DNA of 39,746 bases from an uncultured Christiangramia sp. GTDB taxonomy: Bacteria > Bacteroidota > Bacteroidia > Flavobacteriales > Flavobacteriaceae. Every line of letters begins with the position of its first letter. Positions within the stretch are counted from its first letter, which is position 1. The notes below the pieces were generated by a model. It worked only from the letters and a program-made list of their open reading frames with translations. It did no database searches and was not told the origin of the DNA. Shown piece after piece: positions 27,691 to 39,441 of this stretch. A program made the position numbers and the translations under genes. Location: NCBI RefSeq assembly GCF_913046405.1, contig NZ_CAJWRQ010000014.1, positions 1 through 39,746 of the forward strand, given 5' to 3'.

Positions 27691-28548
27691 TCAATTATTA
27701 GAAGATCTTATACTTAATTCATTGGTTTCCTGAGCACCTCTGTAGATTTCGTGGCGTGGAATTGGTATTTTGATCCCTTCACGATCCAATTCCTTTTTAA
27801 CCGCCTCTAATTGTTCCCAGTATGCCGGCCAGAATTCAATAGATTCAACCCAACATCTAGCCTTGAGTTTCATTTCGTACTCTCCAATTTCATCTAGCCA
27901 GACATCAACAGGTAAGTGCGTAGCTAATTTTTGATGCTTATTCATCCCTGCGATAATGATCTTTCTTAAATTATCAATGTCTTCGTCAAAAGCGAATTTT
28001 AGATTAAGATCAATCCGGCGATACTTTTCCATCGTACGATTATCTATATCACTGTTAGATACATTTCCGTTGGGCATTGTAATGATCCTTCCGTCGAACG
28101 TTTTTATACGTGTGTAAAGAATATCTATCTGCTCAACAAAACCCAGGTTCTCATTTAGATAAATAAGATCTCCAACTTTAAAAGGTTTAAACACCAGAAT
28201 AAGCACACCACCTGCAAAATTAGATAAACTGCCTTGTAAAGCGAGACCAATGGCAATACCAGCCGCTCCAAATATCGCAATAAACGAGGTCGTCTTAATT
28301 CCTAGAATGGAACCAATTACAAAAAACAAAAAGCCATAGAGCACAAAGACACTCAGACTCTCTACGAAAGTTTTCAGGGAAAGTTCCACTTTAGATCTTC
28401 GTAAAGTGCTTTTCAGCAAATTCATTAAAATTTTTATAGCAAAAATTCCAATGATGAGCGTGATAACAGAATAAAATATCTCTGGACCAATCTCGATCAA
28501 AAAGTCAAGCAGTTGTTCTTTAAGTTCGAGCCAGAAATTTCTATCCAT
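27691..28548 (-). CDS. MscS-family small-conductance mechanosensitive channel
   Basis: 285 residues. Two N-terminal membrane helices (ITLIIGIFAIKILMNLL; LSVFVLYGFLFFVIGSIL) precede the pore helix and beta-domain start: IFGAAGIAIGLALQGSLSNF then AGGVLILVFKPFKVGDLIYL. These are the canonical MscS signature with the Ala/Gly-rich pore face and Q at the kink. ITMPNGNVSNSDIDN follows, and the C-terminal alpha/beta domain is complete, so this is a full minimal MscS. It opens under membrane tension to release solutes on hypo-osmotic shock. It lies 21 nt downstream of the DUF808 membrane protein gene, so both are probably one unit. Confidence 0.93.
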   Translation of the reverse strand: MDRNFWLELKEQLLDFLIEIGPEIFYSVITLIIGIFAIKILMNLLKSTLRRSKVELSLKTFVESLSVFVLYGFLFFVIGSILGIKTTSFIAIFGAAGIAIGLALQGSLSNFAGGVLILVFKPFKVGDLIYLNENLGFVEQIDILYTRIKTFDGRIITMPNGNVSNSDIDNRTMEKYRRIDLNLKFAFDEDIDNLRKIIIAGMNKHQKLATHLPVDVWLDEIGEYEMKLKARCWVESIEFWPAYWEQLEAVKKELDREGIKIPIPRHEIYRGAQETNELSIRSSNN

Positions 28549-28569
28549 GTATGTAATTAAATTTAAAAT

Positions 28570-29448
28570 TTATTTGCTGGAAACCGACTTCCATAACTTC
28601 TTACCTAAACCAACCAGAGGTAAAACAATTGCTCCTACAACCAATCCAACCAGGAATTCCCCAAGTATAGTGGGTAAAGAGTGTACCAGGTCATGTATAA
28701 ATTCAAGATTATGCACGAAGATCCCTCCGGAAACCAACATCAAAGCTATCGTACCAATAAGGGCCAAACCCTTGATCACCCATGGCAATGCATTTACTAA
28801 AAATTTACCTACTTTATCTGAAAAGCTATCCGTTTGCTCATTCATATTGATAAGTTTGGCGCCGAATTCGTCCATCCTTACGATAAGAGCAACAACTCCA
28901 TAAACACCAACGGTAGCTACAAATGCAATAACACTTACTACCCCAATTTGAGTTGGTAACTCCTCTCCGCTTACGGTTCCTAAAGCAATAATTACGATCT
29001 CTACAGAAAGTATGAAATCTGTAAGTATAGCCGATTTAACCTTCTCATCTTCTCGTTCTAACATCTGTTCTTTGGTGAGATCTTCTGGAACAGGTGTGGA
29101 TTTCGCATGTTTATGAGGAAACAAATATTCATGGATCTTCTCTGCACCTTCATAAGCCAGGTACAATCCACCAATAAGGAGTATGATATTTATAGCCACC
29201 GGAACAAAAGCACTCAGTAAAAATGCGACCGGTAGAATAATGAGTTTATTAAGTAAAGAACCTTTAGTGATCGCCCATAATACCGGCAATTCTCTATCAG
29301 AAATGAATCCGCTGGCTTTTTCTGCATTAACAGCAAGGTCATCACCAAGTAATCCGGCAGTTTTCTTGCCGGCAACTTTGCTCATCACCGCAACATCATC
29401 CATCAACGCTGCAATATCATCCAATAAAGCAAAAAATCCTGAAGCCAT
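28570..29448 (-). CDS. DUF808 (YedI-like) inner-membrane protein
   Basis: 292 residues starting MASGFFALLDDIAALMDDVA, a start that is diagnostic of the DUF808/YedI family, followed by KVAGKKTAGLLGDDLAVNAE. Later come about six membrane helices, including LIILPVAFLLSAFVPVAINI, VIALGTVSGEELPTQIGVVS-type segments and PWVIKGLALIGTIALMLVSG. Function in the family is unknown. It starts 72 nt after the large ATPase gene and is followed 21 nt later by an MscS channel, so a link to membrane tension or envelope integrity is inferred from the neighbours. Confidence 0.9.
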   Translation of the reverse strand: MASGFFALLDDIAALMDDVAVMSKVAGKKTAGLLGDDLAVNAEKASGFISDRELPVLWAITKGSLLNKLIILPVAFLLSAFVPVAINIILLIGGLYLAYEGAEKIHEYLFPHKHAKSTPVPEDLTKEQMLEREDEKVKSAILTDFILSVEIVIIALGTVSGEELPTQIGVVSVIAFVATVGVYGVVALIVRMDEFGAKLINMNEQTDSFSDKVGKFLVNALPWVIKGLALIGTIALMLVSGGIFVHNLEFIHDLVHSLPTILGEFLVGLVVGAIVLPLVGLGKKLWKSVSSK

Positions 29449-29520: not shown

Positions 29521-32500
29521 TCACAGGTTAGACCTTTTCAAACCATTCTGCAGTGCTTCTTTGATACCTTCCAGATTATCTGTGAATTCCATCATTTGAG
29601 AAAGCAATTGCGCCATCTCATTTTTGTTCCCAAAACCTTTTAGTTTATTATTCTTCTGAAATGTTTCCTGGATGGTATTCCATCTGCTCCGTTCCTCTTC
29701 GTTCAAACTGCCAGTAAGATCCTTATATTTCAATAAGTTTGCTTCCGCAGCTGAAGTAAGCGTTTGAGATTCGCTTTCATAATGTGACAGAATAAGCGTT
29801 TGCAATTCGGCTTCATTCATTACCGGAACCACTTTCGCCACCAGTTTATTCATATCACGGTAGGAGCCTTGTAGTTTAAAAGATGGTTCTGTTCGATATT
29901 CATCTTCCATCGCAGCACTTTTGATATACGCAGCATTCACCTTCAAAACATTGTTTCGAATCTGTATGACCTTTTCGAGAACCGACACATATTCCTGCAC
30001 TTCCTGGTTCGAATAATTTCCGCTCAATTGAATCTCCTGATTATTATTCTCAATTCTGTCCAATAATCTATACACATCATCAAAGTTTTTACTGCTTAGC
30101 TGATGTAAAATAGGATTGGAGGTCAGTGAATTTTCGATCAAACTCAGCCTGAATAGATGAGCGGTATCGCCAATAATATCACCAAGATTGTAAATATCTG
30201 CGCGGTTGGCCAGCATATCGGGAATTCTGAACTTTTCACCAGTTTCAGTATACGGGTTTCCAGCCATGATCACGCAGAACTTTTTCCCGCGCATATCATA
30301 AGTTCGTGATCTGCCATTGTAAATCCCTTCAATTTTCCTGGTTCCGTCGGAAAGTGATATAAACTTCTGAAGAAATTCTGGATTGCAATGTTGAATATCG
30401 TCAAGATACAGCATCACATTATTCCCCATTTCAAATGCAAGATTCAGCTTTTTCAACTCTTCACGGGCGGCGGAATTCGTTGCTGAAGATGGGTCCACTG
30501 AAGTTACATCGTGACCAATCGCGGGGCCATTGATTTTCATAAAAACCAGTCCGAGCCTGTTCGCGATATATTCCATTAAGGTGGTTTTCCCATAACCCGG
30601 AGGCGAAATGAGCAATAGTAAACCCATTCTATCGGTTCTTTTCTGATCTCCAACGGTGCCCAGCTGTTTGGCAAGATTATCTCCAAATAGTGGAAAATAA
30701 ACCTGGTCTATCAATTTATTACGAACAAAAGAATTTAGTGTTCCCGGCTTGAATTCTTCAAGTTTTAGATCTTCCTTCAACTGAATAGTCACTTCGTGAC
30801 GCGCTTTCTTGAATTCCTGGTAGTCCGGAACATCGATCTCAAAATAGCTTTTGTAGGTCGCTATAAAATCATGATAGTTAAAATCGAGTACTCCTGTTTT
30901 AACCAGGCGATGTTCACCTCTTAAATTCTCAATATGCTGAGATGGCGAAGTGAATTTTGTGTTTAAAACAGATTCATCTTCAAAAAGTATAAGCGCTGCT
31001 GCTTCACTTACGTATTTGGTTTTCAAACTCGTTTGTTCACCTAAATTGCTTTGCAAAAATGCCTTCAACCACTGCTCGATCAAGGCGACTTTTGCCTGGT
31101 TTGAACTCAGGCTTTTAAGACTGTCCTTAAATTTAAGATCGGCATTCTCAGACTTCAGCATATTCAGGAAATCTTCTTTGATCCCAATAGCTATTCCGCT
31201 TTTTTGAAAATCATCATCATTTTGCAATTCTTCAAACAAATATTCAGCAACTTCAGAAGCCAGTTCAGGTTCAAAAATTCCTGATTTCTGACCAAAATCT
31301 TGAATCTCTTTGGTTAGGGTTTTCAGCAATGAGTGGTATTCTCTGGAATTTGGAAAAATTTGCAATACTTCTCCCGCGGCTTTTATATTCTGATCTAAAT
31401 TTGACCGTATTTCCGCAGAAGAAAATTTCCAGAAAAATTGCGCGCAGGAACGAATAACAGGATGATAGCGAAGCAAATCCAAAGCCTCGTGTTTTTCCAG
31501 CAGTACGGATAGGATTTTTGCCGCATCCAGATCATGAATTCCTTTCACATATCCTTCAGAATAATCTTTGCTGCTTTCCTCCTGCACCAGCCTGACCAAA
31601 TCTTCCTCCGTATGGTTTTTTAGTTCTTTACCAAATCTTCGGAAGAGCTTATAGGCCAGAAAACCGGAACGATAAATAGTTGAATTTTCAGAAATATAAT
31701 CCTGGCTCCAGAATCTTTCAGACTTTAGAAGAGTCTCATTTTCAATTTTCTGATAAAAGTCGGTTCCTGTTATATGATAATGTAAAGCATCATCCACAAA
31801 TAAGATCGTTAGATCAAGCTCCTGTTTATTAACGCCGAATTTGTGTTTCCCAAGCCTGATGATCGAATCGCCATCCTCGTAAATTTCCTTCTTATCCTTC
31901 AGTTTTCGAAGTGCATCCTCGCGGGCCGACTTCAGCATGGACTGGATTTCCTCAGCCTTACCACTGTCATCCATTTCCTGAAGCTGCACGGCAATATCAC
32001 GCGCTTTATTCACCAGGATATCTGAAGCGAAATAGGCATTGATCTCTGAAACCTCGTTGAAAGATTGAGATTTCTTACGCACCCCTTTCAGGATTCTTTC
32101 TGCGGAATTTTGTAAAGTTACCGCACGTTTATTCCGTTTTTCTACGAGTGTATTCTTACGCGCTTCAAAAGCATTGTAAACTTCTTCCCGCTTCTCAATA
32201 ATAAGCTCAATAAATTCCTCAAAATCGGCAAACTTGCCCTCCAATTCTTCTAGCTGAATGGAAATCCTGGCTTGAAAATCATCACATTTTTCCGGAGTAT
32301 CAGCGATATCAAGGTAATTGATGATACTTTGATCGATAAGCTTTAATTGCGCGGCAAAGTCGGCTTGAGCTTCTGCACTACCAAGGGACTTTCGTTTTTT
32401 CCTGATCTCTGCCTTTAACTGGTTGATCGAAGAAAAAATGAGGGAAATATTATTGATGATCTTTGTAGAATGCGAAGTATCCTCTATTTCAAGATTTGAA

Positions 32501-34407
32501 ACGATATCAATCAATAACTCCAGGTCTTCTGAAATTTTATTGACTTCTTCCTCCAGTTTACGGGCATCAACTACCTTTTTAATATCAGATAGCTGCTCTT
32601 CTTTATCACTTACTGCTTTGTGATAAGGATTCAGAGCTTTTTCATCCAGTAAGAAATCTACGCATCTTCGCGATATCTTCGTAGTTTGCTCTGCAATCTG
32701 CTCTTCGAGGTTTTCTATAAATTGCTCATCTACATAACGTACTTCTTTAAGACTGATCGCTTCTCCTCTTAATGACCTGAGCTGAGTTAATGCATTTACG
32801 AAATCATTGATATTCCGAAAGCCTGAACTTTTTATCTTATTAAAAATCTGCTCGGCTTTTTTCCCAATTTCATTCGTTTTCTGCCTTGCATTTTTCTTGA
32901 GTTCCAGCACCTTTTGAAACTCATCCATCGCAGCATTTGCAGCCTGGTTAATTTCCCGAAGTGGCTCATTTAGAAGCTGAGTTTCCTCATCTTTCAGCCA
33001 GTAATAGGCATCTAGGATATCCTTGGAACGTTTGGAAAGATCTGCATATAAACCATCATAATTATCCTCTTTATTCAGAAGATTTACGAGTCCGTTCACC
33101 TCAGCCATCGCTTTTACGATATCCTTGTTCCCTATCTTATATAACATGCTATTCTCATGACTGGAAGGCATAAAATCACCTTTAAGATATGGCGTTTGCC
33201 AGATCTGGATCACATGGTGTTTGGTTTGTTCATTTTCGTTCTTGAAATAGCATAGTTCACCTTTTTCAAGGATGGTAAAACCATTACAAATGATTGGAGT
33301 CTGAATTTCCTGGGAAATCACATTATAGCTCATCAGGTTGTAGAGTCCATTTTCCCGAGCATAGAAGACATACAGAAAATCCTCACCATTTGGAGAACTT
33401 ATCTTTTCCTGAAATCTAAGATTCGGAATACTATGATCGAATAAATGATATTCCCCGGTTTGCAAATAGTACCCGGTTGGAAATATTATTCCCTGGTCAT
33501 CTGGTAACAAAACGCAGGTATCCTTAATACTGCTGATCTTTTGAACTTCCCGAAGTTTATGATTGTACACAAAATAACGCGGACCTTCCTGAAATGGTTT
33601 GATCTCCAGGATGATAAGATTGCCAAGATTGGCAAAACGATACTGCCCGTCGTCAAGCGTTTGATCTCTATGCTCCACTTCTTCTGAAAAAATACCTTTG
33701 CCATCATTGGTATTATCCTCGATCTTGATCGTAAGATCACCGCCAATTGTCTCTACAAAAACACGATCCAGAATAGAAACATGAGCATGAACTCCCTGCC
33801 TGTGTTGATCCCTGGTAACTTCCTGCCAGTTAAATTCATGTTGTGACGGTAGTTTGTACTCGTGATCACTTCGATTGTCCACATATTGCAAACCTTCATC
33901 TTTAATAAGCCATTTGAAGGTTTTAATATCGGTTACACTCTCGCTTAACCGGAAAACCATATAAAGGTAGTTTCCAATAACCGCGAATTTTGAAAAAATA
34001 GTATTTCTATAGTACTTATAAAGATTTTTAAAATCAGATTCGAAAACATCATTTTTGAGTAGATCTGTATCGATCGCTTCAAAAGCATTGTTCTCAAACC
34101 TGTAAACGCTCATCACATCATTCAAAGAAATTTCTTTACGCAAACCAAAATGCACATTGTAACCAAAAATGCAGGTGTTGCCAAATGAAACGATATCCCT
34201 CGCGATGCAGTTGTTTTCAGTATTGATACGGTCATTAGCAATAAGCCTTGTTTCCAGTGAGCCAAAAACCTTTTTCCGCTCTTCATTTAATTTCTGAAGT
34301 CGGGATTGCAACTCAGTTTTTTGCTTTTGCAGTCTGCCCTGGATTACCTCATAGGTACCAACATCCAGTTTTTGCGCATTCTCTTCCTTTATGGGTTCCT
34401 TTGCCAT
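29521..34407 (-). CDS. Giant AAA+ ATPase (often labelled 'DNA repair ATPase', DUF3686 type)
   Basis: 1628 residues. The N-terminal third (about 1-470) is a beta-rich region (YEVIQGRLQKQKTELQSRLQ then VHFGLRKEISLNDVMSVYRF) of the DUF3686 kind. Residues of about 480-830 are long charged helices of coiled-coil type. The C-terminal AAA+ module shows Walker A SPPGYGKTT (G1271 to T1276), Walker B VMLYLDDI (1331-1338), sensor 1 IMAGNP (N1384) and the arginine-finger region LANRADIY (R1402). The 'DNA repair' label is old and has no support in this sequence; remodelling of a membrane-associated partner is more consistent with PspA and flotillin next door. I chose the ATG at 34405-34407; the longer frame to 34476 would translate a terminator hairpin. 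Confidence 0.85.
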   Translation of the reverse strand: MAKEPIKEENAQKLDVGTYEVIQGRLQKQKTELQSRLQKLNEERKKVFGSLETRLIANDRINTENNCIARDIVSFGNTCIFGYNVHFGLRKEISLNDVMSVYRFENNAFEAIDTDLLKNDVFESDFKNLYKYYRNTIFSKFAVIGNYLYMVFRLSESVTDIKTFKWLIKDEGLQYVDNRSDHEYKLPSQHEFNWQEVTRDQHRQGVHAHVSILDRVFVETIGGDLTIKIEDNTNDGKGIFSEEVEHRDQTLDDGQYRFANLGNLIILEIKPFQEGPRYFVYNHKLREVQKISSIKDTCVLLPDDQGIIFPTGYYLQTGEYHLFDHSIPNLRFQEKISSPNGEDFLYVFYARENGLYNLMSYNVISQEIQTPIICNGFTILEKGELCYFKNENEQTKHHVIQIWQTPYLKGDFMPSSHENSMLYKIGNKDIVKAMAEVNGLVNLLNKEDNYDGLYADLSKRSKDILDAYYWLKDEETQLLNEPLREINQAANAAMDEFQKVLELKKNARQKTNEIGKKAEQIFNKIKSSGFRNINDFVNALTQLRSLRGEAISLKEVRYVDEQFIENLEEQIAEQTTKISRRCVDFLLDEKALNPYHKAVSDKEEQLSDIKKVVDARKLEEEVNKISEDLELLIDIVSNLEIEDTSHSTKIINNISLIFSSINQLKAEIRKKRKSLGSAEAQADFAAQLKLIDQSIINYLDIADTPEKCDDFQARISIQLEELEGKFADFEEFIELIIEKREEVYNAFEARKNTLVEKRNKRAVTLQNSAERILKGVRKKSQSFNEVSEINAYFASDILVNKARDIAVQLQEMDDSGKAEEIQSMLKSAREDALRKLKDKKEIYEDGDSIIRLGKHKFGVNKQELDLTILFVDDALHYHITGTDFYQKIENETLLKSERFWSQDYISENSTIYRSGFLAYKLFRRFGKELKNHTEEDLVRLVQEESSKDYSEGYVKGIHDLDAAKILSVLLEKHEALDLLRYHPVIRSCAQFFWKFSSAEIRSNLDQNIKAAGEVLQIFPNSREYHSLLKTLTKEIQDFGQKSGIFEPELASEVAEYLFEELQNDDDFQKSGIAIGIKEDFLNMLKSENADLKFKDSLKSLSSNQAKVALIEQWLKAFLQSNLGEQTSLKTKYVSEAAALILFEDESVLNTKFTSPSQHIENLRGEHRLVKTGVLDFNYHDFIATYKSYFEIDVPDYQEFKKARHEVTIQLKEDLKLEEFKPGTLNSFVRNKLIDQVYFPLFGDNLAKQLGTVGDQKRTDRMGLLLLISPPGYGKTTLMEYIANRLGLVFMKINGPAIGHDVTSVDPSSATNSAAREELKKLNLAFEMGNNVMLYLDDIQHCNPEFLQKFISLSDGTRKIEGIYNGRSRTYDMRGKKFCVIMAGNPYTETGEKFRIPDMLANRADIYNLGDIIGDTAHLFRLSLIENSLTSNPILHQLSSKNFDDVYRLLDRIENNNQEIQLSGNYSNQEVQEYVSVLEKVIQIRNNVLKVNAAYIKSAAMEDEYRTEPSFKLQGSYRDMNKLVAKVVPVMNEAELQTLILSHYESESQTLTSAAEANLLKYKDLTGSLNEEERSRWNTIQETFQKNNKLKGFGNKNEMAQLLSQMMEFTDNLEGIKEALQNGLKRSNL

Positions 34408-34444
34408 GTTCTCTTCCTGAAGTTTGTGATGTAATTGATGTAGA

Positions 34445-34474
34445 TTAAAAAAGAAGCCGGTGCCAGGCACCGGC
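34445..34474 (-). terminator. Terminator hairpin between the flotillin and ATPase genes
   Basis: Read on the minus strand, GCCGGTGCC-T-GGCACCGGC is a perfect 9-bp inverted repeat (34456-34474, so about 7 bp with a 5-nt loop) followed by TTCTTTTTT. It begins 9 nt after the flotillin stop and 37 nt before the ATPase start. It should reduce transcription into the ATPase gene. Confidence 0.85.
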
Positions 34475-34482
34475 ATTTCCAG

Positions 34483-36558
34483 TTATCTAAGTTTTGAGAT
34501 CGGTTTATCCTGAATTCCCAGTCCTTTTGCCAGGTTCAGAAGATTGCCGAGCATGGTCTGCTCTTCCTTATCATCAGATTTTATCTTAAGATCTGTGATG
34601 AGTGACGCAATACTAAGATTTTTGATATCCTCGGTACTTACTCCATATTTAGAAGCGAAGTCTCTTACTTTTTCCAACAAATTTCCCTTTACATCTTCAC
34701 TACCAAGAATGGCAGTTTTTACCTCCTGAATGTTGGTAGAGTTTTGTACAAGCCTGTCATAACCTTTACCTCTGGTGATCTGTCCAACGATTTGATCAAA
34801 GAACATAGTTTCCCCACCAACGATATCGATCTTAGCCGCTTTCAACGCATCTCCAATAACCTGAGCCTGTGCGTCTGCAATTTCCTTCTGAATATTGATA
34901 TTGGCAAGATCTACCTGAAGATCTTTGTTCAGTCTTAATTTGAACTCTTCGTGTTCTTTTCCAACACCATCCAGTTTCTTCATTGCAGCAGCTTTTTCCT
35001 CGATTCCTGAAGCATCAGCTATCGCTTTCTCTTTAATTACATCTGCTTCAGCAAGTCCATCTTTACGTTTAGCATCTGCTTTGGCTTCCATTCCGGCCGC
35101 TTCAGCACGTGCTTTTTTCTCGATGATATTCGCTTCTACAAGTCCCTGACGTTCGTTAGCATCAGCCTTCGCATGCATTACCTGAGCTTCAGACATACCA
35201 ACAGTTGCTTCTTCTTTCGCTTGAGCTTCCGCAAGAATCTTTCTGGCTTCGGCTTGTTTCTGGCTGGCTTCCTTGTGAGCAAGTGCTTCGATGTTGATCT
35301 CTTCAGCTCTTTGCTTGGCAGCTTCTTTTTGAGCTTCCGCAGCAATCGTTGTTTTAATAAGTTCTTCCTGGGCAGAGGCTTCCGCAGTAGTAATTTTAAC
35401 GTGCTTATCCCTGTCGGCAGTTTTGAATGCCTGGATATCTTTCATGTTTTCCTGCTCTTCTACCACACCTTTTTCCAGCATCACACGGTCGCGAATCACA
35501 TCCTGGATGTTTTTCTTCTCAACCTCCACTACTTTTTCTTTCTCGATCTGAGCAAGAGTTACCACTCTTTCACGTTCGGTTGCTTCCAGTAGTCTGTCTT
35601 TTTCCACTCTTTCAGACTCCACAGCATCTGTACGCTCTTTATTCTTCAGGGCAACGATGATCTGGCGCTGCATATTTTCTTCTGCAACCTTCACTTTTTC
35701 TTCCGTAGCAATTCTGGCGCTTTCAGATTTTAGTCTTTCTTCTTCATTTACTTTCAAGGTTTCAGCTTCTTCGCGTGCTTTGATATTTGATATTTCACGT
35801 TTTTGCTGCTCTTCTTTTTCAGCTAATTGTTTATCCAGTTCAAGAATTGCTTCCCTGGCTTCCACATCTTGCTTTCTGATGGTTTTTTCCTCATCACGCT
35901 TGATAAGATTGGCTTTCATATTCTGAACTGCCGTAAGCTCGGTAATCTTCTTAATCCCTTCTGCATCCAGAATATTGTCTGGCTTTAATTCTTTTACTGA
36001 AGTCTGCTCCAGGAAGTCGATCGCACAATCTTCGAGCGTATAGCCGTTAAGATCTGTGCCAATAATATTTACGATCTCATCACGAAATTCACGTCTGGCT
36101 TCATACAATTCGATAAAATCGAATTTTTTACCAACCGTCTTTAATGCTTCTGAAAATTTTGCTTCAAAAAGATCTTCCAGAGTGGCAATTTTAGATGCAC
36201 GGTCCACACCTATGGTCTGCGCTACTTTTTTAATATATTCAATATCATTGTTCACCCGAACGAAAAAGGCAACTTTGATATCTGCACGCATATTGTCTCT
36301 ACAAATAAGACCTTCATGCGCCAGTCTTTCGATCTGGATCTTCTTGACAGAAATATCCATGATTTCGGTTTTATGAAAAACAGGTACCGTATACAGACCT
36401 TTATCTGTAGCGACCTTTGTTCCTCCAAAACCGGTCCTGATGAGCGCCTGTCCCTGGGGAATTTTTTTATAGAACATCGCGATGATCGCGAAGTAAACGA
36501 TGATTAGAAATAGTAATACGCCTATTCCAATTCCAATAATTGGTAAGATTGATTCCAT
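34483..36558 (-). CDS. Flotillin-family membrane scaffold protein (YqiK-like)
   Basis: 691 residues. An N-terminal membrane helix (IIGIGIGVLLFLIIVYFAII, about 6-28) is followed by the SPFH/Band-7 domain: GQALIRTGFGGTKVATDKGL, RADIKVAFFVRVNNDIEYI, and EALKTVGKKFDFIELYEARR (to about 210). Then comes a very long Ala/Glu/Lys coiled coil (about 215-540, with EAQKEAAKQRAEEINIEALA and similar repeats) and a C-terminal globular part. Flotillins oligomerise at the inner membrane and organise lipid domains. The length and the YqiJ-like gene 15 nt upstream match the YqiJ-YqiK pair of E. coli. It is the fourth gene of the operon and ends just before a terminator hairpin. Confidence 0.93.
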   Translation of the reverse strand: MESILPIIGIGIGVLLFLIIVYFAIIAMFYKKIPQGQALIRTGFGGTKVATDKGLYTVPVFHKTEIMDISVKKIQIERLAHEGLICRDNMRADIKVAFFVRVNNDIEYIKKVAQTIGVDRASKIATLEDLFEAKFSEALKTVGKKFDFIELYEARREFRDEIVNIIGTDLNGYTLEDCAIDFLEQTSVKELKPDNILDAEGIKKITELTAVQNMKANLIKRDEEKTIRKQDVEAREAILELDKQLAEKEEQQKREISNIKAREEAETLKVNEEERLKSESARIATEEKVKVAEENMQRQIIVALKNKERTDAVESERVEKDRLLEATERERVVTLAQIEKEKVVEVEKKNIQDVIRDRVMLEKGVVEEQENMKDIQAFKTADRDKHVKITTAEASAQEELIKTTIAAEAQKEAAKQRAEEINIEALAHKEASQKQAEARKILAEAQAKEEATVGMSEAQVMHAKADANERQGLVEANIIEKKARAEAAGMEAKADAKRKDGLAEADVIKEKAIADASGIEEKAAAMKKLDGVGKEHEEFKLRLNKDLQVDLANINIQKEIADAQAQVIGDALKAAKIDIVGGETMFFDQIVGQITRGKGYDRLVQNSTNIQEVKTAILGSEDVKGNLLEKVRDFASKYGVSTEDIKNLSIASLITDLKIKSDDKEEQTMLGNLLNLAKGLGIQDKPISKLR

Positions 36559-36573
36559 TGTAGTTAGATTAGA

Positions 36574-37284
36574 TTATTCGTTGTATGATTGTACGAGGTA
36601 ATAATTGCGATCTGCAGACCGCTTGATAATAAGAACACTACTTCCATAATTTAGAGGCTCTCCGCTGAGCGATTTTACATAAATGGAAAGGCTGTCGCCA
36701 TTTACGCTCACCTCGGCATTTCCCATTCTATCCTTAGAAATCGTGGATAAAAGGGTTGCTTTGCGACCCAGGTAATCGATAGGAGCATCGCCATCCTTAT
36801 TCAGATTTTTAAAGAAACCTTTAAAAGGTGTGGTAAGTATCTTGGTGACGAATAGTGCCGGAAATAATGCCAGCAGCATGATCCCAAAACCTATAAAGTT
36901 ATCATAGCTTGAAGTGATCGCGGTAACCAGGGTAGTTATGAACCACCAGACAAAGATCCAGAAAGTAAAAGTGAACATGAATGGCAGTCCCACGAAATTG
37001 AAATAGATGAGGAAGATCTGCCACCATTTTAAAGGTTTTCGACTTTTCCCAACCACGTCTTCCTGGTTGATCTCGGTATTGGAAATATCTTCAAAATCCA
37101 TATTTCCACCTTCGATCCCGGAATCCAGATCCACATCTGCATCCACATCCACATCGATATCAAAGTCCGGATCGAAATCCAGACCTCCTATCATGGTGAT
37201 GATCCAGTAGAGAATCAGAATAATGAGCAACACGCTCAGGATCACGTTTACCTCTGAAAAAAGTATGTTGATTAGGTTATCCAA
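36574..37284 (-). CDS. YqiJ-like membrane protein with OB-fold domain
   Basis: 236 residues: TM1 at about 10-33, an acidic loop with DPDFDIDVDVDADVDLD (about 38-54), two or three more helices (WWQIFLIYFNFVGLPFMFTF to about 126; IGFGIMLLALFPALFVTKIL to about 150), then a C-terminal OB-fold from about 168 (GRKATLLSTISKDRMGNAEV to the end). This is the architecture of YqiJ, the partner of flotillin YqiK, and related to NfeD proteins that help flotillins assemble. It overlaps nothing but sits 2 nt after the pspA gene and 15 nt before flotillin, so it is tightly co-transcribed. The alternating Asp loop looks able to bind calcium, though this is untested. Confidence 0.85.
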   Translation of the reverse strand: MDNLINILFSEVNVILSVLLIILILYWIITMIGGLDFDPDFDIDVDVDADVDLDSGIEGGNMDFEDISNTEINQEDVVGKSRKPLKWWQIFLIYFNFVGLPFMFTFTFWIFVWWFITTLVTAITSSYDNFIGFGIMLLALFPALFVTKILTTPFKGFFKNLNKDGDAPIDYLGRKATLLSTISKDRMGNAEVSVNGDSLSIYVKSLSGEPLNYGSSVLIIKRSADRNYYLVQSYNE

Positions 37285-37286
37285 GT

Positions 37287-38003
37287 TTATTCGTTTTTAG
37301 AATCTTTCATTCCAAGTTGTTCTTTAAGCTTCGCCAGTTCATCACTTGCTTTTGCTTTTGAGGTATCTGCCGCCTTATCGATTACCTCATCGATGGATTT
37401 AGAAGCATTGGCGATGTCTCCGTAAGCCTCGGCCAGCGCTTCTTCCTGGGCTACTTTCTCCTTCATTCTTTCCAGCATAGATACTGTACCGGTACTATCC
37501 AGCTCTGCCATTTGTTTATTCAGGTTTTTGGTAGCATTCGATACTTTAACCCTTGCTTTTAGTGTCTTGAGTTCATTCTCCCAGTTCCCAATATTTGCTT
37601 TTATGGTCTGGATATTCTTTTGCAATTGAGCTACGTTATTATCGAATTTAACCGACTCCTCCTTGGCTCTTAAAACCTGCTGTTCCGCATCTTCTTTTTG
37701 CACAAGAGCTTCCTGCGCCAGGCGATCTGCTTCTGCCTGCTGCATGTCTTTGGAATGTGCTTTTTTCAGGATGATGATCGCTTTATTCTGATAATCGTCC
37801 ACTTTATTCTGAAATTCTTCCTGGTCGTTCTTTGCTCTAATCGCAAGTGCTTTCACCTGTGCCAGTGCCTCCAGACTTTTATCCAGGTCAAGTTTCATGT
37901 CTCTAATGCCCTGTTCGGTCATTTTGATTGGATCCTCCATTTTGTCCAGGGCAGAATTTGTTTCTGCCTCTCCTATTTTAAATAATCTCTTAAAGATGTT
38001 CAT
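37287..38003 (-). CDS. PspA/IM30-family membrane-remodelling protein
   Basis: 238 residues, almost entirely helical. It opens with the amphipathic MNIFKRLFKIGEAETNSALD and the conserved MEDPIKMTEQGIRDMKLDLD (family pattern 'EDP.K...q.i.dm...l'), followed by long coiled-coil helices to about 190. This is the ESCRT-III-like PspA fold, which polymerises on damaged inner membrane and restores proton impermeability. It lies 11 nt after the YbjN-like gene and 2 nt before the YqiJ-like gene. In contrast to proteobacterial psp operons there is no PspB, PspC or PspF nearby; the divergent XRE regulator may fill the regulatory role, which is inference. Confidence 0.9.
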   Translation of the reverse strand: MNIFKRLFKIGEAETNSALDKMEDPIKMTEQGIRDMKLDLDKSLEALAQVKALAIRAKNDQEEFQNKVDDYQNKAIIILKKAHSKDMQQAEADRLAQEALVQKEDAEQQVLRAKEESVKFDNNVAQLQKNIQTIKANIGNWENELKTLKARVKVSNATKNLNKQMAELDSTGTVSMLERMKEKVAQEEALAEAYGDIANASKSIDEVIDKAADTSKAKASDELAKLKEQLGMKDSKNE

Positions 38004-38014
38004 AATGCTGAATT

Positions 38015-38410
38015 TTAATATTTTGAGAATTCTATGATATGATCTGAATATTCACTCATTAATAAGCTGAGTGAGTTTAAGCTCCCTTCCAATTCGTTCA
38101 GATCCATGTTCTCAATCTGAAGGGTATCGCGGTAAATGACTTTTTCACCAGACTCGTCCAGTACAAAAGCTCCATGAACGATATCGCGATTCTTCTGTAA
38201 CAAGCTTTTAAAGATCTTTTCAGACTGGTTATTGATCTTGAAAATGTACTGCTCCATAATTAAAATTGGCGGAGCAACGCCTACGATGAGATTTCTAATT
38301 CCAGAATTTTCTTTTTGAATCACCAAAAGTCCATCTTCCGGATTCTCCCGGGTGATATTAAAATTCAATTCCAGCAAAAAATCTCTCGTAATATTAAAGT
38401 GATTTTTCAT
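38015..38410 (-). CDS. YbjN/Tir-chaperone-like small protein
   Basis: 131 residues, no signal peptide or membrane helix. The alternating helix-strand order (MKNHFNITRDFLLELNFNIT; LIVGVAPPILIMEQYIFKIN; HGAFVLDESGEKVIYRDTLQ; a final helix SLLMSEYSDHIIEFSKY) fits the YbjN/type III secretion chaperone-like fold. Proteins of this fold recur next to PspA and AAA+ ATPases and are thought to act as adaptors. It is first in the operon, 11 nt before pspA, and its ATG lies opposite the XRE gene across a 266-nt promoter gap. The fold is a moderate-confidence call and the role is inferred from context. Confidence 0.65.
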   Translation of the reverse strand: MKNHFNITRDFLLELNFNITRENPEDGLLVIQKENSGIRNLIVGVAPPILIMEQYIFKINNQSEKIFKSLLQKNRDIVHGAFVLDESGEKVIYRDTLQIENMDLNELEGSLNSLSLLMSEYSDHIIEFSKY

Positions 38411-38469: not shown

Positions 38470-38593
38470 AGACTTTGTTAAAGAAACGTGATTAGCTCGG
38501 TGGCTATATCGATAATAAGTGAGATCATAATTCTAATTCTTTAGTTGGTTCATAATAGATCTCTGAGTGTTCGAACATTTCAGACTAAAAAAA

Positions 38594-38675
38594 TTAGCAA
38601 TACTGAAATGTATTTGCTAATATTGTTAGACTAATTTACAATAATTATTCAATTCTGCAAATATTATTAGCAATA
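38594..38675. promoter_or_regulatory. Repeated TTAGCAATA boxes at the XRE regulator gene
   Basis: TTAGCAATA occurs at 38594-38602 and again at 38667-38675, ending one base before the start codon of the XRE gene. An inverted TTGCTAA at 38614-38620 pairs with the first TTAGCAA. The arrangement suits autoregulation by a dimeric repressor that also sits in front of the divergent psp-like operon. Confidence 0.55.
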
Positions 38676-38676
38676 A

Positions 38677-39441
38677 ATGTCTTTATTCGGAAAAAATATC
38701 AGGAAAATAAGATCGGTTCGTAGTTTGAGTCAGCAGGCATTTGCTGAGCTATTCGACCTGAAACGGGGTACATTGGGTGCTTATGAAGAAGGACGAAGCG
38801 AACCTAAGATCGAAACCATTATTAAGATTGCTAATTATTTTAGCATTCCAATAGATGACCTGCTTACCAGCGAACTTACGGTAAATGAACTGCTGAAGTT
38901 TAGAGGCAAACCTGAGCATGATGACCTGAAAGCTAAACCAGATATTTGCAAAAAGGTGCCCTGCATCATCCCGGAACAGCAAGAGGAATATATTCAGCAT
39001 CACACAAAGAATAATTTTATAGAAGATCTACCGGAAATTCATCTACCTATCTATAATGAAGAAAATCTACGAGCTTTTGTAATTCACGACCTCGAGATGA
39101 GCACAGATTCTGATGGATTTTACCCGAAAGATGTGGTGATAGGTGAGAAAGTTCAGAAGAAGCAATACCCTAATCTCGCGAGCGCATGTTTGTTCCTGAT
39201 AGTTTCCGAAGAAAAAGTATTCCTGAGAAGAATATACCAGTCGGCTAAAAAATTCATTTTGAAAGCAGACCATAAAGGCATTGAAGATATTGAGATTCTT
39301 TACGCTGATGTTAAAGAGCTATGGGAGATCAAATACGCTTTTTACCATCGTATTCCAGATAGTAGAAATACCGACATCAAACAACAACTGAGTTTTTTAG
39401 AGGAAGAATTTCATAAGCTGCGTACGTCTCTCAACAATTAA
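38677..39441 (+). CDS. XRE-family regulator with S24-like C-terminus
   Basis: 254 residues. The helix-turn-helix is at about 5-62 (IRKIRSVRSLSQQAFAELFD, then LKRGTLGAYEEGRSEPKIET). After a linker, residues about 145-235 resemble the LexA/phage repressor S24 domain: RAFVIHDLEMSTDSDGFYPK followed by DVVIGEKV and FLIVSEEKVFLRRI. The catalytic serine of the usual GDSM motif is replaced (HDLEMS), so self-cleavage looks lost and the domain may serve only dimerisation or ligand sensing. TTAGCAATA repeats at its promoter suggest autoregulation. It is divergent from the ybjN-pspA-yqiJ-flotillin operon and is its likeliest local regulator, though this is inferred from position only. Confidence 0.85.
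   Translation: MSLFGKNIRKIRSVRSLSQQAFAELFDLKRGTLGAYEEGRSEPKIETIIKIANYFSIPIDDLLTSELTVNELLKFRGKPEHDDLKAKPDICKKVPCIIPEQQEEYIQHHTKNNFIEDLPEIHLPIYNEENLRAFVIHDLEMSTDSDGFYPKDVVIGEKVQKKQYPNLASACLFLIVSEEKVFLRRIYQSAKKFILKADHKGIEDIEILYADVKELWEIKYAFYHRIPDSRNTDIKQQLSFLEEEFHKLRTSLNN

What the first reader, a model, noticed from the sequence alone, without database searches (positions are those of the whole stretch)
29521..38410. PspA-flotillin-YqiJ-YbjN operon joined to a giant AAA+ ATPase
Five adjacent minus-strand genes encode a YbjN/chaperone-like protein, PspA, a YqiJ-like OB-fold membrane protein, flotillin and a 1628-residue AAA+ ATPase, with gaps of 11, 2, 15 and 75 nt. PspA (ESCRT-III-like), flotillin-YqiJ and an AAA+ motor resemble, in parts, eukaryotic membrane remodelling by ESCRT-III with Vps4. 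No PspB, PspC or PspF is present. The ATPase is usually annotated as a DNA repair protein without support. I infer a membrane surveillance machine in which the ATPase disassembles PspA or flotillin polymers.
Basis: partly seen in the sequence, partly recalled or inferred. Interest (0 to 1): 0.68.

Follow-up and report, generated by a model that had tools for sequence, protein, structure and literature searches.

The report
Flotillin–AAA ATPase unit with PspA module
A known bacterial membrane-stress gene cluster looks like two modules joined together: a large ATPase usually encoded beside a flotillin membrane scaffold, and a PspA–chaperone pair that is an optional add-on.

Summary
The five genes exist as described, with the stated gaps. 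The operon is published: Ravi et al. 2024 describe CesT/Tir–PspA, YqiJ, band-7/flotillin and an AAA+ ATPase with propeller and coiled coil, and already draw the ESCRT analogy.

Comparison separates two modules. YqiJ–flotillin–ATPase travels together: flotillin lies upstream in 89 of 92 evaluable loci from eight phyla or classes, and close relatives of this flotillin were found in exactly the same 10 of 392 Bacteroidota genomes as the ATPase. PspA is optional: upstream in 47 of 58 Bacteroidota loci but 1 of 28 others. Seven of 24 ATPase genomes gave no PspA match. The CesT–PspA pair stands without the triad in 14 of 24 genomes.

The predicted AAA+ fold is nearest MoxR-class motors (CbbQ, NorQ). 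Pfam found neither Vps4's MIT nor its C-terminal domain. The ATPase is thus more likely a flotillin-docked remodeller than a PspA disassembler; this is inferred, not shown.

The parts
38677..39441 (+).
   Evidence: Pfam HTH_19 4e-12. The Hymenobacter relative matches Peptidase_S24 at 7.7e-7; the window protein itself does not. Present in 45 of 47 Bacteroidota dyad loci with at least 6 kb upstream
38655..38673 (.). Candidate operator, 19-bp palindrome TTGCWAAnnnnnTTWGCAA, 1 mismatch
   Evidence: Site with <=1 mismatch upstream of 41 of 48 regulators vs 12 of 960 random stretches of the same loci and 0 of 960 shuffles; one of the few <=1-mismatch sites in the genome
38582..38641 (.). Weaker operator-like sites in the same intergenic region (38582-38600, 38614-38632, 38623-38641; 3 mismatches each)
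   Evidence: at 3 mismatches the window as a whole is not enriched (21 vs 15.8 expected), so weak
38828..38846 (.). Candidate intragenic operator inside the regulator gene, 1 mismatch
   Evidence: <=1 mismatch in 23 of 48 regulator genes, at the same offset in 22 and 6 nt earlier in L014; the bases code for conserved residues
38015..38410 (-). CesT/Tir-type chaperone (CesT_Tir_1), module 1
   Evidence: PF22550 1.5e-56
37287..38003 (-). PspA/IM30 (ESCRT-III superfamily), module 1; only PspA found in this genome
   Evidence: PF04012 8.4e-41
36574..37284 (-). YqiJ/NfeD2-like membrane protein (DUF1449-type), module 2
   Evidence: gene in the same place in Hymenobacter annotated DUF1449; upstream of the ATPase in 83 of 88 evaluable loci
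34483..36558 (-). Flotillin: TM + SPFH/Band_7 + long coiled coil, module 2
   Evidence: Band_7 6.7e-14; upstream in 89 of 92 evaluable loci
29521..34407 (-). 1628-aa DUF3686 AAA+ ATPase, module 2 (ORF opens at 34476)
   Evidence: PF12458 2.5e-180, PF25472, PF00004
33190..34260 (-). ATPase residues 50-406: WD40-like beta-propeller
   Evidence: AF2 model of the N half, mean pLDDT 86.8; DCAF1 WDR Z 10.0, rmsd 5.8, 222 aligned
31879..32970 (-). ATPase residues 480-843: long coiled-coil helices
   Evidence: DSSP on the model; Pfam DUF7902 lies within
29707..30771 (-). ATPase residues 1213-1567: MoxR-like AAA+ domain; Walker A SPPGYGKTT, Walker B YxDDIQH, sensor 1 GNP, NRAD (putative arginine finger), GSYR (putative sensor 2)
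   Evidence: CbbQ2 Z 17.0, NorQ Z 16.3; motif residues invariant or nearly so in 80 rows; motif roles recalled, assigned by eye

Best explanation
Two modules under one regulator. Module 2 (YqiJ/NfeD2, flotillin, DUF3686 ATPase) is a dedicated unit: flotillin and YqiJ build a membrane scaffold on the cytoplasmic side, and the ATPase, probably a ring of MoxR-class AAA+ domains with long coiled-coil arms and beta-propellers, docks on it and uses ATP to remodel the flotillin assembly or proteins held by it, without a protease. Module 1 (CesT chaperone + PspA) supplies a membrane-binding polymer kept in check by its chaperone; in Bacteroidota it was joined to module 2, probably so that damaged membrane organised by flotillin is also coated by PspA. 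A divergent XRE-type regulator binds palindromic operators between the two transcription units and controls both. Shown here: gene linkage, modularity, predicted folds, conserved ATPase motifs, regulator and palindrome conservation. Inferred: physical docking, ring formation, substrate, DNA binding by this regulator and the sign of regulation.
For: Flotillin upstream of the ATPase in 89 of 92 evaluable loci and YqiJ in 83 of 88; PspA in 48 of 86, of which 1 of 28 outside Bacteroidota. Window-type flotillin (>=53% identity) in exactly the same 10 of 392 genomes as DUF3686 (E limit 1e-30). CesT_Tir_1 at >=131 bits in 24 of 392 genomes: the 10 with DUF3686 plus 14 without; all 14 have CesT and PspA and no YqiJ, flotillin, ATPase or regulator in the 14 kb fetched. 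Seven of 24 ATPase genomes have no PspA match at E <= 0.001. Tree: Bacteroidota ATPases form one clade; over the 85 rows with a known state the PspA-neighbour label needs 5 changes, with absences nested among carriers, e.g. L069 and L081, L042. Distance correlations: ATPase with flotillin partial 0.41, with PspA 0.11. MoxR-like AAA+ fold. Regulator and palindrome; in L069 and L081 both remain with the triad although the dyad is gone.
Against: No interaction, localisation or activity data. L052 and L092 encode the ATPase with no flotillin found in about 10 kb upstream, and in L071 flotillin and YqiJ are divergent. Among the 9 loci left out for short upstream sequence, L046 (2.1 kb) and L051 (1.5 kb) also show no flotillin in what there is. 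In 20 of the 89 the flotillin-ATPase gap exceeds 400 nt, up to 1780. PspA stays nearby in most Bacteroidota loci, and Pseudomonas plasmid pQBR103 carries a different PspA set (YjfI-PspA and others) next to the same triad, which argues for some real PspA link. Nine Bacteroidota triad loci have neither dyad nor regulator. Partial correlations are confounded by shared ancestry. The 80 named loci are the best scorers of 587, itself a capped list, so the sample leans to Bacteroidota.
Confidence: 0.55

Rival explanations
1. First reader and Ravi et al.: an ESCRT-like membrane machine in which the AAA+ protein disassembles or remodels PspA polymers, as Vps4 does for ESCRT-III.
For: PspA upstream in most Bacteroidota loci (47 of 58); a second, different PspA set beside the triad on pQBR103; Ravi et al. 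infer analogues of ESCRT-like complexes.
Against: PspA upstream in 1 of 28 other loci and undetected in 7 of 24 ATPase genomes; CesT-PspA stands without the ATPase in 14 of 24 genomes; no MIT or Vps4_C by Pfam; fold nearest MoxR.
Confidence: 0.2
2. Proteostasis unit: flotillin with YqiJ/NfeD holds unfolded membrane or cytosolic proteins, and the ATPase refolds or extracts them, a protease-free counterpart of HflKC-FtsH.
For: S. aureus FloA-NfeD is reported as an ATP-independent stabiliser of unfolded proteins (Ukleja et al. 2024 as cited in PMC13086221, passages); SPFH1, SPFH3 and SPFH4 proteins are linked to the AAA protease FtsH (PMC2636767, passages); no protease domain in the ATPase by Pfam.
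Against: No client known; overlaps with the best explanation and differs only in the substrate.
Confidence: 0.15
3. A DNA repair ATPase, as the Pfam and RefSeq names say, next to membrane genes by accident.
For: Name in PF12458 and RefSeq; RuvB similarity around the P-loop by sequence and RuvB as Foldseek's first hit.
Against: Linkage to flotillin across phyla; the closer structural comparison puts CbbQ and NorQ first; no DNA-binding domain seen by Pfam.
Confidence: 0.04
4. An accessory defence or plasmid-stress system using membrane sensing.
For: Patchy distribution (10 of 392 genomes); carriage on plasmids such as pQBR103.
Against: Only a weak PADLOC match (mad8, E 0.0004, over an AAA stretch); no phage record; apart from the regulator no neighbour cluster reaches 10 of 101 loci, though clusters were not annotated.
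Confidence: 0.06

Closest known systems
CesT/Tir-PspA + flotillin + AAA+ + YqiJ operon of Ravi et al. 2024 (PMC11237479)
   Same: All five genes and their domain descriptions; the paper also notes abbreviated YqiJ-flotillin(-AAA+) operons
   Different: Added here: counts showing coupling to flotillin, MoxR-like fold, divergent regulator and palindrome. The words LexA, S24 and Xre are absent from its main text; HTH occurs 17 times, in other contexts in the passages shown. Figures and supplements were not seen
MoxR-class AAA+ ATPases CbbQ and NorQ
   Same: AAA+ fold (Z 16-17 over about 240-253 residues)
   Different: CbbQ/NorQ are short and act with VWA-domain partners (NorQ-NorD VWA complexes listed; the rest recalled); here a propeller, coiled coil and helical region are fused in front and none of the eight locus proteins scanned has a VWA domain
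HflKC-FtsH (SPFH scaffold with AAA+ protease)
   Same: SPFH scaffold paired with an AAA+ motor
   Different: No protease domain by Pfam; motor of another AAA+ class; flotillin/NfeD2 rather than HflKC
E. coli YqiJ-YqiK / B. subtilis YuaF-FloT
   Same: NfeD2-flotillin pair
   Different: No ATPase in the operon (recalled). The nearest ATPase-less Bacteroidota flotillins found share 28-38% identity; in the 7 of 12 compared, few conserved columns are kept in the coiled coil around 321-360 and at 521-600
ESCRT-III/Vps4
   Same: PspA belongs to the ESCRT-III superfamily; an AAA+ ATPase is nearby
   Different: No MIT or Vps4_C domain; PspA dispensable in several genomes

Membership tests
CesT/Tir-PspA-flotillin-AAA+ operon (Ravi et al. 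2024) | CesT/Tir-PspA dyad | tested here: met
   PF22550 and PF04012 hits, adjacent genes
CesT/Tir-PspA-flotillin-AAA+ operon (Ravi et al. [quoted passage not shown]
   Band_7; conserved pattern beyond the SPFH domain in 90 aligned sequences. TM and coiled coil are read by eye; no separate Pfam flotillin C-domain hit
CesT/Tir-PspA-flotillin-AAA+ operon (Ravi et al. [quoted passage not shown]
   models and fold searches
CesT/Tir-PspA-flotillin-AAA+ operon (Ravi et al. 2024) | 3TM YqiJ/YuaF-like protein | tested here: inconclusive
   No strong Pfam hit; the Hymenobacter counterpart is annotated DUF1449; TM count not computed
Vps4-type AAA ATPase | MIT domain and Vps4 C-terminal domain | tested here: not met
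   hmmscan at E <= 0.1 finds neither in the 1651-aa ORF
Vps4-type AAA ATPase | AAA+ fold nearest classical AAA | tested here: inconclusive
   Top rows are CbbQ and NorQ, then dynein and ClpA; absence from the list excludes nothing. Strands 524-529/532-537 look like a pre-sensor-1 hairpin, which classical AAA lack (recalled)
MoxR-class AAA+ | AAA_5/MoxR-like AAA+ fold | tested here: met
   AAA_5 27.3 bits over cut-off 22, though PF00004 scores higher at 32.1; CbbQ2 Z 17.0, rmsd 4.1, 253 aligned
MoxR-class AAA+ | VWA-domain partner gene | tested here: not met
   None of the eight locus proteins scanned has a VWA domain; elsewhere in the genome not tested
Classical Psp system (pspABC/pspF) | PspB, PspC and PspF linked to PspA | tested here: not met
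   None among the eight locus proteins; one clear PspC-domain protein elsewhere in the genome
DNA repair ATPase | DNA-binding domain or DNA-repair neighbours | tested here: inconclusive
   No DNA-binding domain seen by Pfam; neighbour clusters were counted but not annotated; biochemistry not testable

The most novel reading that the evidence does not exclude
DUF3686 proteins are the dedicated AAA+ partner of one flotillin subfamily: a protease-free SPFH-AAA+ machine of MoxR class that spreads between phyla, partly on plasmids, and that Bacteroidota fused with a PspA-chaperone module under its own palindrome-binding regulator.
Probability: 0.4. Interest if true: 0.65.

Novelty: new member of a known kind. 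Interest (0 to 1): 0.45.

Why it matters
What bacterial flotillins do mechanistically is still unclear. If a flotillin subfamily has a dedicated ATP-driven partner, flotillin function becomes directly testable with an enzyme assay and clean deletions, and a large protein family now called 'DNA repair ATPase' would be renamed. The operon itself was already in print, which limits surprise; the modular split, the MoxR assignment and the regulator with its palindrome are the additions.

Tried and rejected
MscS channel and DUF808 genes downstream (27691-29448, same strand, gaps 21 and 72 nt) looked like operon members, but a phmmer search found neither in any of the other 100 loci (some loci are short downstream), so they are left out.

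Defence-system reading: PADLOC gave only mad8 at E 0.0004 over an AAA stretch, and no phage record matched. Kept only as a minor rival.

Sequence search against solved structures: the 60 best rows for the AAA half were P-loop matches such as p97 and RuvB; the N half matched only a coiled coil at E 0.01. Foldseek's first hit for the AAA half by E-value was RuvB (TM-score 0.17 and 0.36), with CbbQ2 second (0.22 and 0.56); VIA-align put CbbQ2 first. Vps4 and p97 are not among the 50 rows shown, which excludes nothing.

A LexA-like self-cleaving regulator: in the 24 of 48 rows viewed, the S24-like part mostly lacks the serine and is short or missing in several rows, so self-cleavage is not proposed. 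Catalytic positions were assigned by eye.

Palindrome elsewhere in the genome: <=1-mismatch sites at C58:6681 (inside another XRE-S24 gene) and C22:21 (at a contig end). No regulon is claimed. At <=3 mismatches the window is not enriched (21 vs 15.8 expected). The pattern was built from the same regions on which it was then counted; the unbiased step is the dyad count (TTGC-N11-GCAA in 27 of 48 regions vs at most 15 for any 4-bp dyad in 20 shuffles).

Rows dropped before counts: loci with too little upstream sequence (9 of 101 for flotillin, 13 for YqiJ, 15 for PspA; the window, with 5.3 kb, is not in the PspA count). Of those 9, 4 show a cut flotillin and 5 none. Of the 50 genomes with a CesT_Tir_1 match at E <= 0.001, only the 24 at 131 bits or more were used; the 26 weaker ones were not examined. 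One search got 28 handles: 27 of the 38 evaluable loci without PspA upstream, plus L096, which has only 3.2 kb upstream; L023 was too large and was not searched, and 3 of the 27 searched were plasmid-collection records. states no completeness for these genomes. Snf7 as a stand-in for PspA was not tested. The label count of 9 changes treated rows with short upstream sequence as lacking PspA; with those rows left out it is 5.

Literature: no paper with 'DUF3686', none with MoxR + PspA + AAA+, one listing with MoxR + flotillin that looked unrelated, only Ravi et al. with beta-propeller + AAA+ ATPase + flotillin + bacterial. Supplements could not be read; no bioRxiv collection and few subscription papers are held.
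Full report
OBSERVATION. The window holds the five minus-strand genes at the stated places and gaps. Pfam names them CesT_Tir_1, PspA_IM30, (no strong hit; YqiJ/DUF1449-like), Band_7 and DUF3686 + DUF7902 + AAA (DUF1449 from the annotated Hymenobacter counterpart). The first gene is CesT/Tir rather than YbjN proper. The genome has one PspA, this one, and one clear PspC-domain protein elsewhere.

ALREADY IN PRINT. Ravi et al. 2024 (PMC11237479; passages, section 19) describe this operon gene by gene, note shortened operons without PspA, and infer ESCRT-like complexes. Popp et al. 2022 (PMC9239133, passages) report band-7 genes next to pspA in Bacteroidota and other phyla. No paper in the searched library names DUF3686.

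WHO TRAVELS WITH WHOM. Counting same-strand genes within 7.5 kb upstream: flotillin 89 of 92 evaluable, YqiJ 83 of 88, PspA 48 of 86, CesT_Tir_1 46 of 86. The flotillin-ATPase gap is at most 400 nt in 69 of the 89 and reaches 1780 nt. PspA is present in 47 of 58 Bacteroidota loci and 1 of 28 others (the YjfI-type set of pQBR103). Exceptions: L052 and L092 have no flotillin near; L071 has flotillin and YqiJ divergent. Among loci left out for short upstream sequence, L046 and L051 show none in the 2.1 and 1.5 kb available.

Within 392 Bacteroidota genomes, DUF3686 is in 10. The window's flotillin has >=53% relatives in the same 10 and no other; 12 further genomes hold only 28-38% relatives at E <= 1e-30. 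CesT_Tir_1 at 131 bits or more is in 24: those 10 and 14 others; 26 genomes with weaker matches were not examined. In all 14 others CesT and PspA are there but no YqiJ, flotillin, ATPase or regulator is found in the 14 kb fetched. In 24 ATPase-bearing genomes where PspA was not seen upstream (for one, L096, only 3.2 kb could be seen), PspA over the family cut-off was found in 13, weak matches only in 4, and none in 7; the 7 include the records named Chryseobacterium balustinum, C. aahli, Hyunsoonleella pacifica and Rhodopirellula baltica (names; completeness not given). So the ATPase can occur without a recognisable PspA, and PspA with its chaperone without the ATPase.

HISTORY. In a quick tree of 99 ATPases the 65 Bacteroidota rows form one clade. 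Over the 85 rows whose upstream state is known, the PspA-neighbour label needs 5 changes (9 against 33.3 in shuffles when rows with short upstream count as lacking). Rows without it nest among carriers (L069 and L081 within Chryseobacterium; L042 beside Aquimarina). This fits joining early in Bacteroidota with later losses of the dyad alone. Distances between 46 complete loci agree with two modules: flotillin-YqiJ r 0.82, PspA-CesT 0.76, flotillin-PspA 0.56; the ATPase's partial correlation is 0.41 with flotillin, 0.38 with the regulator, 0.16 with CesT, 0.14 with YqiJ and 0.11 with PspA. Shared ancestry confounds these numbers, so they are supporting only.

THE ATPASE. Residues 50-406 fold as a WD40-like propeller (DCAF1 Z 10.0), followed by long coiled coils to residue 843. 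The C-terminal half (mean pLDDT 89) ends in an AAA+ domain nearest CbbQ2 (Z 17.0, rmsd 4.1, 253 aligned) and NorQ (Z 16.3), then dynein and ClpA. Walker A, Walker B (DD in place of the usual DE), sensor 1 and the NRAD arginine are invariant or nearly so in 80 rows, so it is probably an active ATPase. Pfam finds no MIT, Vps4_C, VWA or protease domain.

THE FLOTILLIN. I compared 90 ATPase-linked flotillins with 7 (of the 12 genomes found) from genomes without DUF3686, all 7 with a YqiJ-like neighbour, two of them weak matches. The columns conserved in the ATPase-linked set are kept least in the coiled coil around residues 321-360 and in the C-terminal stretch 521-600 (14-16%, against about 60% in the SPFH domain). 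These are candidate docking sites; this is inference.

THE REGULATOR. Clustering 1334 neighbouring ORFs gave one strong extra partner: a divergent XRE-type regulator in 48 loci, all Bacteroidota. It is present in 45 of 47 Bacteroidota dyad loci with at least 6 kb upstream, in the window, and in L069 and L081, where CesT-PspA is missing but the triad remains; 9 Bacteroidota triad loci have neither. It was not found in the 28 other-phylum loci or in the 14 stand-alone dyads. Upstream of it lies a palindrome, TTGCWAAnnnnnTTWGCAA, with <=1 mismatch in 41 of 48 loci, against 12 of 960 random stretches and 0 of 960 shuffles, and in 0 of 37 triad loci that lack the regulator even at <=2 mismatches. 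A copy at a near-fixed place inside the regulator gene has <=1 mismatch in 23 of 48; since it codes for conserved residues, constraint on the DNA is possible but not proven.

MECHANISM. Best reading: flotillin with YqiJ forms the scaffold, and the MoxR-class ATPase remodels it or what it holds; PspA with CesT is an optional membrane-coating module. Precedents: SPFH proteins pair with the AAA protease FtsH (PMC2636767, passages); an SPFH protein links PspA to the membrane in B. subtilis (PMC8581546, title and start of abstract in the listing); FloA-NfeD stabilises unfolded proteins (as cited in PMC13086221, passages); BacA, a YjfI-family protein with the fold of type-III chaperones, is said to interact strongly with the PspA-like BacB (unpublished results quoted in PMC10948618, passages). 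None of this shows that this ATPase acts on flotillin.

VERDICT. Interest 0.45.

Noticed in passing
window 27691-29448 (-): MscS-type mechanosensitive channel and DUF808 membrane protein follow the ATPase on the same strand with gaps of 21 and 72 nt; not found in the other 100 loci.
   Followed up: yes
window 38828-38846: Operator-like palindrome inside the regulator gene, near-fixed position and <=1 mismatch in 23 of 48 relatives.
   Followed up: partly
L142 2182-2200 (genome contig C58:6681): A perfect copy of the palindrome lies inside another XRE-S24 (GDSM-bearing) regulator gene of the same genome.
   Followed up: partly
L022 980-6104: Plasmid pQBR103 carries YjfI, PspA, rhomboid, DUF2491, DUF350, DUF1190 and glutathionylspermidine synthase-type genes directly upstream of the YqiJ-flotillin-ATPase triad: a different PspA set joined to the same triad.
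   Followed up: partly
L103, L104: ATPase read as two ORFs (possible frameshift or sequencing error).
   Followed up: no
L062 9869-19831: Gimesia ATPase ORF of 3320 aa, about twice the usual length, with a long C-terminal extension.
   Followed up: no
L118-L131: In 9 of 14 stand-alone CesT-PspA dyads a same-strand ORF of 136-174 aa lies just upstream; not identified.
   Followed up: no
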